Shown piece by piece: positions 2,659 through 21,707 of a DNA stretch of 64,000 nt (its first letter is position 1; each line of letters opens with the position of its first letter). The DNA lies in the NCBI GenBank assembly GCA_013343275.1, contig CP046106.1:434001-498000 (forward strand), given 5' to 3'. The notes below the pieces were generated by a model that saw only the letters and a program-made list of their open reading frames with translations, was not told the origin of the DNA and searched no databases. The stretch comes from Candidatus Nanohaloarchaea archaeon. Its GTDB lineage: Archaea > Nanohalarchaeota > Nanosalinia > Nanosalinales > Nanosalinaceae. The translations under genes were made by a program, and so were the position numbers.

Positions 2659-4467
2659 ATGAGCACAGAGAAAAACGCAAAGAACTTCATCGTTGTAATC
2701 GACCAGGAGAAGATAGAACCTGACCTGGCGAAGGAGACCGTCATAAAGTACGATCCATTGAACAGGTCAGGAAAAGAAGGCGGATTCCGCCTCGATGACG
2801 AAGGCCACCTCCACATCGACAACGAAAACGTCATGGAGGCCCACAAGATGGCGATCAACAAGTACCCATACGACGGAGCCATCCAGCTAATCCGACTGGA
2901 CAGAGAGTTCGGAGAAAAAATCCACCAGTACGGGGAAAACGCATTCAGACTCTACGGCCTACCAGAACCAAAAGAAGGCCGGGTAACAGGAATCCTCGGA
3001 AGAAACGGGATCGGAAAATCCACGGCCCTGAGAATACTTGCAGGCGACATAAAGCCAAACCTGGGCCAGTTCGAAGAAGAACCCGACTGGAGCGAAATAA
3101 AGAAAGAATACCGTGGAACAGGCCTCCAAACCCATTTCAACAAACTCGCAGAAGGAGAAGTTACCTCGGCATTCAAGCCTCAGCAGGTCGATAAGATCCC
3201 TGAGTACCACGAAGGGACTGTAGAGGATCTTCTGGAGATAGAGGATGAACGAGATGTTATCGGGGAAGTTGCAGAGAAGACCGATATCTCACATCTTATG
3301 GACAGAGAGCTCGACGAGCTTTCCGGCGGAGAGCTGCAGAGAGTAGCTATTGCATCGACAATGGTGAAAGACGCAGATCTCTACATGTTCGACGAGCCAT
3401 CCTCATTCCTGGACGTAAAACAGCGCTTGAATATTGGAGAGGCCATCCACGCACTTTCGGAGGATGCAGCTGTACTGGTCGTAGAGCACGATCTGGCGAC
3501 GCTCGATCTCGTATCTGACGCAGTACATGTCTTTCATGGAGAGGCCGGAGCCTACGGAATGGTATCGAACGCTTTCTCGACAAGAGAAGGGATAAACCAG
3601 TACCTCGACGGCTACCTCAAAACACATAATTTACAGATCAGAAGCGAATCCATCGACTTCAAACGGACCAAAAGAAGCCAGGTGGAGAAGAAGGCCTCCG
3701 TCTTCGAGTACCCAGAGCTAGCGAAAAGCTTTGGACAAGGAAAGTTCTCACTGGAAGTTGACTCAGGAGTGCTCCACGAGGAGGAGGTTCTCGGAATATT
3801 CGGAGAGAACGGCCTCGGAAAAACTACCTTTGCAAAAATGCTGGCCGGCGCACTGGAGCCAGATCAGGGCCAGTCCCCTGAAGTCGATCTCTCATTCAAA
3901 CCGCAGTACTTGGAATCTCAGGATGCAAACGTTGAGGCCGTAATTTCTCAGCATGTCAACCCTGAGAACAAGAAGTTCAAGAACCGTATTGCAGAACCCC
4001 TCGGGATCGAAGATCTCTACGAGCAGAACATCAACGACCTATCCGGCGGAGAGTTACAGAAAGTGGGCGTCGCGATCTGTCTGTCCAGAAACGCAGACGT
4101 ATACGTACTGGACGAGCCATCGGCCTACCTCGATGTAGAATCAAGAGTGGAACTAGGGAGAGTGATAAAGAGGTTCGCACGGAAAACCGAGAAACCTGTC
4201 ATGGTAATCGATCACGACCTCATACTCCTAGACTATATCTCCGACAGAGGCCTTGTATTCGAGGGAGAGCCAGGAGTTGAAGGCTATGCAGATAATCCTT
4301 CGAAGATCGGAGAGGCTATGAACAAGTTCCTGAAACTCGTGGATCTGACATTCAGGAAGGATCCGGAAACCGGGAGACCTCGAGCCAACAAACCCGGCAG
4401 CCAGAAAGACAAGCAGCAGAGGAAAAAAGACGAGTTCTACGAGCAGAAAGCGGTGAAGAAAGAATGA
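2659..4467 (+). CDS. rli1: ABCE1/Rli1 ribosome-recycling ATPase lacking the Fe-S cysteines
   Basis: Twin-cassette ABC ATPase that splits ribosomes after termination. Cassette 1 has Walker A GRNGIGKS (114-121), signature LSGGELQRVAIA and Walker B MFDEPSSFLD; cassette 2 has GENGLGKTT, LSGGELQKVGVA and VLDEPSAYLD. The hinge II tail FRKDPETGRPRANK is typical of ABCE1. The odd part is the N-terminus: the two 4Fe-4S clusters of the family need eight cysteines, yet residues 1-110 contain none. By alignment with the family consensus (from memory) the eight positions are I19, A24, V28, D32, V58, A61, M64 and Y69, while flanking landmarks (VID, PLNRSGKE, PYDGAI, YGENAF) remain. The domain is kept but cannot bind clusters in the usual way. 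The gene overlaps the next by 4 nt. Confidence 0.95.
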   Translation: MSTEKNAKNFIVVIDQEKIEPDLAKETVIKYDPLNRSGKEGGFRLDDEGHLHIDNENVMEAHKMAINKYPYDGAIQLIRLDREFGEKIHQYGENAFRLYGLPEPKEGRVTGILGRNGIGKSTALRILAGDIKPNLGQFEEEPDWSEIKKEYRGTGLQTHFNKLAEGEVTSAFKPQQVDKIPEYHEGTVEDLLEIEDERDVIGEVAEKTDISHLMDRELDELSGGELQRVAIASTMVKDADLYMFDEPSSFLDVKQRLNIGEAIHALSEDAAVLVVEHDLATLDLVSDAVHVFHGEAGAYGMVSNAFSTREGINQYLDGYLKTHNLQIRSESIDFKRTKRSQVEKKASVFEYPELAKSFGQGKFSLEVDSGVLHEEEVLGIFGENGLGKTTFAKMLAGALEPDQGQSPEVDLSFKPQYLESQDANVEAVISQHVNPENKKFKNRIAEPLGIEDLYEQNINDLSGGELQKVGVAICLSRNADVYVLDEPSAYLDVESRVELGRVIKRFARKTEKPVMVIDHDLILLDYISDRGLVFEGEPGVEGYADNPSKIGEAMNKFLKLVDLTFRKDPETGRPRANKPGSQKDKQQRKKDEFYEQKAVKKE

Positions 4468-20465: not shown

Positions 20466-21707
20466 ATGAGCCAGAATCAAAACCACGATGAAATGAGCAA
20501 GTACCAGTTGAAGAAGCTGGTCAACAAGCTGGAGGACATCAGAGGCCGGAACACTGAGCTTGTATCGCTGTACATTCCTGCAGGATACGACATGTCGAAG
20601 ATCTCCGAGTTTATTACATCCGAATCTTCAGAGGCCGAAAACATCAAGTCGAAGCACACCAGGAAGAACGTGAAGGCCGCCCTTGACAAGATTTCCAGGA
20701 GGGTGAAGGAGGAGCCTGTTACCCCGGAAAACGGTGTTGCTTTCTTCGCAGGAAATGTCTCCGAACGCGAGGGACGGCCTGATATCCAGCTGTGGGAGGT
20801 TATCCCTCCTCAACCGATCGAATCACGCAGATACCGCTGTGACAAGGAGTTTGTTCTACAGCCTCTGAAAGATATGATCGTCGACGACCGAGTTTACGGA
20901 CTGATCGTTGCCGACAAGAACGAGGCTGCGATAGGATACCTTCAGGGCTCCTCAGTGAAGACCGCATATACACTATCATCTAATGTGCCTGGAAAGACCA
21001 GGGCCGGAGGACAGTCGGCACAGAGGTTCGCCCGTTTGAGAAAGGAGATGCTGAAATCCTTCCTCCAGGAGATAGCGGAGAAATCGAAGAACGCATTCAT
21101 GAGTAAGGCCCGCGAGGATAAGCTGCTGGGCATCATTATCGGAGGCCCTGGATTTGTGAAGGACAAGCTTGTCAGCGATGACTACCTTCATCAGGAACTT
21201 CAGGACAAGGTTATTGCGAACAAGTCGCTGGGCCACTCCGGGGAAGGCGCACTGAAGGAGCTTGTTAACAAGGCGGAGGACGATATCGAGGACTCTGCTG
21301 TTGTGCGTGAAAAGCAGTTAGTGAACGATTTCCTTGAGAACCTGAAGGAGGAGAACGGGAAATCCGAGTACGGCCTGGAACCTGTAATAAAGGCCCTGAA
21401 AATGGGTGCTGTAGATACCATTCTCATCTCGGAGGACTACGAATCTTTCAAGGCCGACTACGAATGTCCCAACGGCCACGAAGATACAGTCTTCGAAGAG
21501 GAGGCTGAGATAGAGGATTCAAAGGAGTGTCCTGAGTGCAATGAGGAGATGAAACTCGAGGAGATGCAGGACATAGTCGATTACATGGCAGGTAAGGCCG
21601 AGGAGATGAGTTCGGATCTTGAGATTATCTCCACTGATCACGAGGAAGGTCAGAGATTGATGAATATGGGAGGCGTTGCCGCCATCCTGCGGTACAGAAT
21701 CCGTTAA
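20466..21707 (+). CDS. prf1: Peptide chain release factor aRF1
   Basis: 413 residues, full length for aRF1. Domain 1 has the stop-codon motif NIKS (in ENIKSKHTRKN) and YRCDKEF (YxCxxxF). Domain 2 has the GGQ loop TRAGGQSAQRFARLR that triggers peptide release. Domain 3 has a mini zinc-ribbon-like insert (YECPNGHED and KECPECNEEM). It acts together with the ABCE1-type recycling factor encoded at 2659. A GTTAAAAG box lies 28 nt before the ATG, with AGGCCT between them. The stop overlaps that of the convergent DedA gene by 4 nt. Confidence 0.97.
   Translation: MSQNQNHDEMSKYQLKKLVNKLEDIRGRNTELVSLYIPAGYDMSKISEFITSESSEAENIKSKHTRKNVKAALDKISRRVKEEPVTPENGVAFFAGNVSEREGRPDIQLWEVIPPQPIESRRYRCDKEFVLQPLKDMIVDDRVYGLIVADKNEAAIGYLQGSSVKTAYTLSSNVPGKTRAGGQSAQRFARLRKEMLKSFLQEIAEKSKNAFMSKAREDKLLGIIIGGPGFVKDKLVSDDYLHQELQDKVIANKSLGHSGEGALKELVNKAEDDIEDSAVVREKQLVNDFLENLKEENGKSEYGLEPVIKALKMGAVDTILISEDYESFKADYECPNGHEDTVFEEEAEIEDSKECPECNEEMKLEEMQDIVDYMAGKAEEMSSDLEIISTDHEEGQRLMNMGGVAAILRYRIR

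What the first reader, a model, noticed from the sequence alone, without database searches (positions are those of the whole stretch)
2659..2990. ABCE1/Rli1 with all eight Fe-S cysteines replaced
Seen: residues 1-110 contain no Cys, while both ATP cassettes and hinge motifs are normal. Known: in ABCE1 two 4Fe-4S clusters on eight near-invariant Cys drive ribosome splitting. Aligned by eye, the positions are I19, A24, V28, D32, V58, A61, M64, Y69, and the surrounding landmarks (PLNRSGKE, PYDGAI, YGENAF) are retained. Inference: the domain persists with a non-cluster core, so recycling works without Fe-S, or the protein has changed role.
Basis: partly seen in the sequence, partly recalled or inferred. 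Interest (0 to 1): 0.88.

Follow-up and report, generated by a model that had tools for sequence, protein, structure and literature searches.

The report
Ribosome recycling factor without iron-sulfur clusters
A tiny salt-lake archaeon and its relatives carry a fully conserved version of ABCE1, the machine that splits used ribosomes, in which every cysteine that normally holds its two supposedly indispensable iron-sulfur clusters is gone, so nature appears to have built this core machine without the metal part.

Summary
The ORF at 2659-4467 is the only ABCE1/Rli1 in this 916-kb genome; its N-domain has no cysteine. It is not a misjoin: 19 genomes of this family (Nanosalinaceae) and two Nanohalalkaliarchaeaceae-type genomes carry the same cysteine-free domain. 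That domain is under stronger purifying selection than the ATPase cassettes, and every cassette, HLH and hinge motif is intact. Fe-S assembly (SufB/D) and a normal radical-SAM Elp3 are retained, so loss of Fe-S synthesis is not the cause.

The cysteine-free form also occurs in haloarchaea, often on plasmids, as an extra copy beside a canonical eight-cysteine ABCE1; phylogeny places it inside the nanohaloarchaeal clade (transfer). Several copies lie in stress islands that include the Fe-S repair protein RIC. Relatives keep exactly four cysteines (C1, C2, C3, C8: one cluster), implying stepwise loss, 2 to 1 to 0, with cluster I lost twice.

Most likely this is a working ribosome-splitting factor whose Fe-S domain became a cluster-free protein wedge. 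Function is inferred, not shown. One correction: the second-motif replacements are M59, H62, A65 and Y69, not V58, A61, M64 and Y69.

The parts
2659..4467 (+). Cysteine-free ABCE1/Rli1 (602 aa), the only ABCE1 of the genome
2686..2898 (+). N-terminal former Fe-S domain (residues 10-80), predicted (beta-alpha-beta)2 ferredoxin-like fold, no cysteine
2713..2754 (+). First Cys motif replaced: C1 to I19 (2713-2715), C2 to A24 (2728-2730), C3 to V28 (2740-2742), C4 to D32 (2752-2754; D in all zero-cluster forms and in the one-cluster forms L046, L062 and L206)
2833..2865 (+). Second Cys motif replaced: C5 to M59 (2833-2835), C6 to H62 (2842-2844; H in all zero-cluster forms and in L046, L062 and L206), C7 to A65 (2851-2853), C8 to Y69 (2863-2865)
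2998..3021 (+). Walker A of NBD1 (GRNGIGKS)
3079..3183 (+). ABCE1-specific helix-loop-helix region of NBD1 to Q-loop
3319..3345 (+). ABC signature 1 (LSGGELQRV)
3553..3642 (+). Hinge 1 region (residues 299-328)
3802..3825 (+). Walker A of NBD2 (GENGLGKT)
4039..4065 (+). ABC signature 2 (LSGGELQKV)
4318..4419 (+). Hinge 2 (MNKFLKLVDLTFRKDPETGRPRANKPGSQKDKQQ)
21300..21701 (+). Match to eRF1 domain 3 in a 423-codon open frame: presumed aRF1, the termination partner of ABCE1 (a second match, presumed aPelota, lies outside the window at contig 817161-817430)

Best explanation
The gene encodes a working ABCE1 ribosome-splitting ATPase in which the N-terminal domain keeps the ferredoxin-like fold and its mechanical job (swinging out to push the subunits apart with aRF1/aPelota and then sitting on the small subunit), but is held together by a protein core instead of two [4Fe-4S] clusters. 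Cluster I ligands (C1, C2, C3, C8) became hydrophobic or aromatic (I/A/V/Y here; V/V/A/I in the haloarchaeal type). The cluster II pocket (C4-C7) became D32/M59/H62/A65, with Asp and His invariant. Loss was stepwise: cluster II first, then cluster I, in parallel in two lineages. The gene type then moved from nanohaloarchaea into haloarchaea, where it is kept as an extra, often plasmid-borne copy that probably recycles ribosomes when Fe-S clusters are damaged (NO, oxidants, metals). Shown by sequence: loss, conservation, stepwise forms, transfer, linkage. Inferred: splitting activity, absence of metal, stress role.
For: Sole ABCE1 of the genome, with no Cys in the N-domain. Same in all 18 complete f1 orthologs, a partial 19th, and two f3 orthologs. 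RLI equivalog 723.6 bits. All NBD, HLH and hinge motifs kept. N-domain omega 0.02-0.06 against 0.03-0.17 in the NBDs for five unsaturated pairs. AF2 pLDDT about 86-94 for the folded N-domain; best PDB matches are ABCE1, TMq 0.93, rmsd 2.1 to ribosome-bound rabbit ABCE1. One-cluster forms with exactly C1, C2, C3, C8 in L046, L062, L199, L206. Cassette-only tree: a single origin of the zero-cluster forms is rejected, p-AU 0.0045. Haloarchaeal copies nest with nanohaloarchaeal f3 and far from the haloarchaeal canonical ABCE1; each such genome also has the canonical gene. aRF1 and aPelota matches in every f1 genome. SufB/D and Elp3 CxxxCxxC present. RIC single-copy and 13-35 kb from the Cys-free ABCE1 in 5 of 5 contiguous cases; island genes shared.
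Against: No activity, metal or structure measurement exists. Several FeSD-rRNA contacts of S. solfataricus (R2, K15, N17, E19) are not kept in the Cys-free forms, although P25 and R28 are; canonical haloarchaeal ABCE1 also departs at R2 and K59. The domain modelled without any cysteine-bearing relative folds only at low confidence (pLDDT 57.6), with the right secondary-structure order. Seven of 13 haloarchaeal genomes with the Cys-free copy have no RIC, so the stress link is not universal. Nanohaloarchaea of anaerobic sediment also have it (PMC9765267), so oxygen alone does not explain it.
Confidence: 0.78

Rival explanations
1. The protein has left recycling and become another ribosome-associated ABC ATPase (regulatory, anti-association or biogenesis role), with something else splitting ribosomes.
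For: Several FeSD-rRNA contacts are rewired. Some archaea lack ABCE1 altogether although most of those checked keep aRF1/aPelota, so recycling without ABCE1 seems possible. In haloarchaea the Cys-free protein is an accessory second copy.
Against: It is the only ABCE1 in the Nanosalinaceae; all catalytic, HLH and hinge motifs are kept; aRF1 and aPelota are both retained; the N-domain is more constrained than the cassettes.
Confidence: 0.12
2. The domain still binds a metal, but a different one: D32 and H62 at the former C4 and C6 positions form a mononuclear or other non-cysteine site in the old cluster II pocket.
For: D and H are invariant in all 34 zero-cluster sequences of the alignment and present in one-cluster forms L046, L062 and L206; in the tree L062 lies apart from the nanohaloarchaeal clade.
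Against: Only two plausible ligands, the other two positions being M/I/L and A/I/V; a hydrogen-bonded D-H pair explains the conservation equally well; one-cluster L199 has S and D instead.
Confidence: 0.08
3. Assembly error, frameshift or misjoin at the 5' end, or a canonical copy missed because the genome is incomplete.
For: Completeness is 96.5%, not 100%.
Against: Same domain in 20 other independent assemblies, including several single-contig genomes, and none of the f1 or f3 genomes has a Fer4_RLI match.
Confidence: 0.01
4. The clusters were lost because the lineage can no longer make Fe-S clusters.
For: The Fe-S proteome looks small: one radical-SAM match in most f1 genomes (two in G005 and G009) and a primase without the PriL Fe-S domain.
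Against: SufB and SufD are present in exactly the Cys-free families f1 and f3 and absent from f4, which keeps all eight Cys; Elp3 keeps its radical-SAM cysteines.
Confidence: 0.03

Closest known systems
Canonical ABCE1/Rli1 (P. abyssi 3BK7, S. solfataricus 6TMF, yeast Rli1)
   Same: Twin ATPase cassettes, HLH, hinges 1 and 2, N-domain of similar length and predicted fold; about 38-44% identity to solved full-length ABCE1 structures over about 600 columns
   Different: None of the eight Cys, hence no [4Fe-4S] clusters; several rRNA-contact residues changed
Archaeal Rpo3 (RNA polymerase) ferredoxin-like domain, PMC5300874
   Same: Ferredoxin-like domain of an information-processing protein present with two, one or no [4Fe-4S] clusters in different archaea; Halobacteriales keep the domain without the cluster motifs
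   Different: Cluster-free Rpo3 is already described; its clusters act in polymerase assembly and were shown to be non-essential in Methanosarcina, whereas ABCE1 clusters are regarded as essential (PMC8153317)
Fused PriS-PriL-type primase lacking the PriL Fe-S domain (found here in nanohaloarchaea)
   Same: A core replication protein of the same genomes that lacks its Fe-S part
   Different: There the Fe-S domain is absent, and the protein ends in a possible zinc finger; in ABCE1 the domain persists

Membership tests
ABCE/RLI subfamily (NF009945) | Full-length match to the RLI equivalog above cut-off | tested here: met
   723.6 bits against 469, residues 11-596
ABCE/RLI subfamily (NF009945) | Two complete ABC cassettes (Walker A/B, Q-loop, signature, H-switch) | tested here: met
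ABCE/RLI subfamily (NF009945) | HLH insertion in NBD1, hinge 1 and hinge 2 | tested here: met
   aligned and conserved; structure match to ribosome-bound ABCE1
Fe-S ABCE1 (two-cluster type) | Eight Cys in CxxxxCxxxCxxxCP and CxxCxxCxxxCP motifs | tested here: not met
   zero of eight; no Fer4_RLI or Fer4 match
Fe-S ABCE1 (two-cluster type) | Bound [4Fe-4S] clusters | not testable with these tools
   ligands absent; metal content not measured
ABCE/RLI subfamily (function) | ATP-dependent 70S splitting with aRF1/aPelota | not testable with these tools
   partners present; activity not testable
2[4Fe-4S] ferredoxin-like fold | (beta-alpha-beta)2 fold | tested here: inconclusive
   confident in the full model, whose alignment includes Cys-bearing ABCE1; same secondary-structure order but low confidence from Cys-free sequences alone, best PDB match 3bk7 at E 0.022

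The most novel reading that the evidence does not exclude
A ribosome-splitting factor that needs no iron-sulfur cluster evolved stepwise (two, one, no clusters) in nanosized halophilic symbionts, and was handed to haloarchaea, where a plasmid-borne copy serves as a spare ribosome recycler when nitric oxide, oxidants or metals destroy the clusters of the normal ABCE1.
Probability: 0.4. Interest if true: 0.88.

Novelty: new variant of a known kind. Interest (0 to 1): 0.78.

Why it matters
ABCE1 is described as present in all archaea and eukaryotes, and its two clusters as essential (PMC6088178, PMC8153317); [quoted passage not shown] What they are for is still open. Natural versions with eight, four and zero cluster cysteines make that question directly testable, and haloarchaea that hold both the eight-Cys and zero-Cys genes offer an in vivo system. 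It would also show that Fe-S dependence of translation can be lost, and that such a core translation factor can move horizontally, here placed from the nanohaloarchaeal lineage into haloarchaea.

Tried and rejected
Loss of Fe-S biogenesis as cause: rejected, SufB/D present. Misassembly: rejected by independent genomes. A hidden canonical copy: none found. Viral carriage: no relative in IMG/VR. One origin of all zero-cluster forms: rejected on a cassette-only tree, p-AU 0.0045. Zero-cluster forms plus L046 and L062 as one clade: p-AU 0.0167; with more taxa L062 groups with L199. The domain-only structure model was too uncertain to carry weight; its PDB matches are only consistent with a ferredoxin-like fold. 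Papers: only one paper in the held library has both ABCE1 and Nanohaloarch, and the passages read do not mention this; a report in a subscription journal cannot be excluded.

Full report
OBSERVATION. The ORF at window 2659-4467 (+) encodes 602 residues. It is an ABCE1/Rli1: the NCBIfam RLI equivalog matches at 723.6 bits, cut-off 469, and both cassettes, the NBD1 helix-loop-helix region and the two hinges are intact. Its first 110 residues hold no cysteine, and Pfam's Fer4_RLI and Fer4 are absent, while a canonical nanohaloarchaeal relative scores for both. The genome (915,886 bp, one contig, 96.5% complete) has no Fer4_RLI match and no second full-length ABCE1.

CORRECTION. The second motif, CxxCxxCxxxCP, aligns without a gap to M59-E-A-H62-K-M-A65-I-N-K-Y69-P (phmmer against 3BK7; MAFFT). 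So the four positions that would bind cluster II (C4-C7) hold D, M, H, A. D and H are invariant in all 34 zero-cluster sequences of the alignment; the cluster I positions (C1, C2, C3, C8) hold I/A/V/Y. The assignment of ligands to clusters follows the general rule for 2[4Fe-4S] ferredoxins (own knowledge), and is consistent with which cysteines the one-cluster forms retain.

NOT AN ARTEFACT. All 18 full-length orthologs of the same family (f1, which includes named Nanosalina, Nanosalinarum and Nanohaloarchaea assemblies) plus one partial, and two of family f3 (which includes Nanohalalkaliarchaeum), are cysteine-free in this domain. In contrast family f4 (G021) and another nanohaloarchaeal MAG (L063) keep the canonical cysteines. 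The domain is under strong purifying selection: omega 0.02-0.06 for five pairs at moderate distance, below the cassettes' 0.03-0.17; other pairs are saturated or very close. AlphaFold2 on an alignment that includes canonical relatives gives pLDDT 90.1 overall and about 86-94 for the folded N-domain; PDB matches are led by ABCE1, TMq 0.93 and rmsd 2.1 to ribosome-bound rabbit ABCE1. The domain alone, from cysteine-free sequences only, is low-confidence (57.6) but gives the same secondary-structure order.

NOT A LOSS OF FE-S SYNTHESIS. SufB/SufD are found in exactly the families that have the cysteine-free gene (f1, f3) and not in f4 or f5. The Elp3-like radical-SAM protein keeps CGGGCIYC. Fe-S use nevertheless looks reduced: most f1 genomes have one radical-SAM match, and the primase is a PriS-PriL-like fusion without the PriL Fe-S domain.

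STEPWISE LOSS. Four proteins keep exactly C1, C2, C3 and C8, one cluster's ligand set, and have lost C4-C7: Ods01 (L046), a 72% identical protein in a 1.9-Mb genome of the haloarchaeal class (L206), a Woesearchaeon (L062), and G065 (L199). A fifth, G139 (L202), has lost C1 and C3 but keeps the other six, including C4-C7: the reverse pattern. In cassette-only trees Ods01 is sister to the f1 clade (100/98); holding the zero-cluster forms together as one clade is rejected (p-AU 0.0045). The simplest reading is one loss of cluster II followed by two separate losses of cluster I (f1; f3 plus haloarchaea); the different replacement residues at the cluster I positions in the two lineages fit this. 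L062 and L199 form a separate pair (100/99), so cluster II was probably lost at least twice, unless the N-domain moved on its own.

TRANSFER TO HALOARCHAEA. Thirteen haloarchaeal genomes examined carry cysteine-free copies (Natrinema zhouii two), each beside a canonical eight-Cys ABCE1. The cysteine-free copies nest with the nanohaloarchaeal f3 genes and lie far from the haloarchaeal canonical clade. Several are on plasmids. In a sample of 146 genomes of the class, 5 had one, three of them already known here. In several, the gene lies among DUF2249, CGCGG-RiPP, DsrE, TusA, cupin, UspA, redoxin, DtxR-type regulator and a second TrpRS. The Fe-S repair di-iron protein RIC is single-copy in 6 of 13 genomes and lies about 13-35 kb from the cysteine-free ABCE1 in all five where both are on one contig; for one gene in roughly 4 Mb, chance proximity is about 2% each, though the islands are related, so these are not independent. 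Seven genomes have no RIC.

MECHANISM. aRF1- and aPelota-type matches are present in every f1 genome, so the recycling partners remain. In the S. solfataricus 30S complex (PMC7196836; chain sequence confirmed) uS12-facing P25 and R28 are kept here, whereas rRNA-facing R2, K15, N17 and E19 are not; canonical haloarchaeal ABCE1 also departs at R2 and K59. I conclude that the N-domain most likely still works as the moving wedge, with a cluster-free core. Splitting activity, metal content and the stress role of the haloarchaeal copies are inference.

PRECEDENT AND NOVELTY. Rpo3 shows that a ferredoxin-like domain in the archaeal information machinery can persist with two, one or no clusters (PMC5300874). 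For ABCE1, reviews state presence in all archaea and essential clusters (PMC6088178; PMC8153317), and I found no report of a cluster-free form. I therefore call it a new variant of a known kind: an ABCE1 by descent that fails the Fe-S criterion.

Noticed in passing
Genomes of family f11 (10 genomes, 93-97% complete), f5 (G022, G024-G027) and others: No ABCE1 at all (no match better than about 1e-16 in f5, none at 1e-40 in f11), although aRF1/aPelota-type matches are present in four of the five f5 genomes; 28 of 38 archaeal genomes without Fer4_RLI lack ABCE1.
   Followed up: partly
L202 (G139): ABCE1 with C1 and C3 lost but C4-C7 kept: the reverse one-cluster pattern.
   Followed up: partly
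L062 and L199: One-cluster ABCE1 (C1, C2, C3, C8 kept) in a Woesearchaeon and in G065, sister to each other and apart from the nanohaloarchaeal clade.
   Followed up: partly
L189 (G000:C1:509865-510128 region): 484-codon frame, PriS-PriL-type fusion primase (weak PriL match) without the PriL Fe-S domain, ending in a CxxC...H...C zinc-finger-like tail.
   Followed up: partly
G000:C1:527392-529185: SufB and SufD present in f1 and f3 but absent in f4 and f5, opposite to what loss of ABCE1 clusters would suggest.
   Followed up: partly
L161, L162, L163 (haloarchaeal plasmids): A second tryptophan-tRNA ligase and a succinate dehydrogenase-type Fe-S subunit travel near the cysteine-free ABCE1.
   Followed up: no
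L054 and L055 (Natrinema zhouii plasmid); L052 and L183 (Haloplanus ruber): Two cysteine-free ABCE1 copies on one plasmid; the Haloplanus copy is interrupted (500-aa frame, remainder in another frame).
   Followed up: no
L143 (canonical haloarchaeal ABCE1): Walker B of NBD1 reads FYFLDEITP in L143 instead of the usual DEPSS/DEPTS.
   Followed up: no
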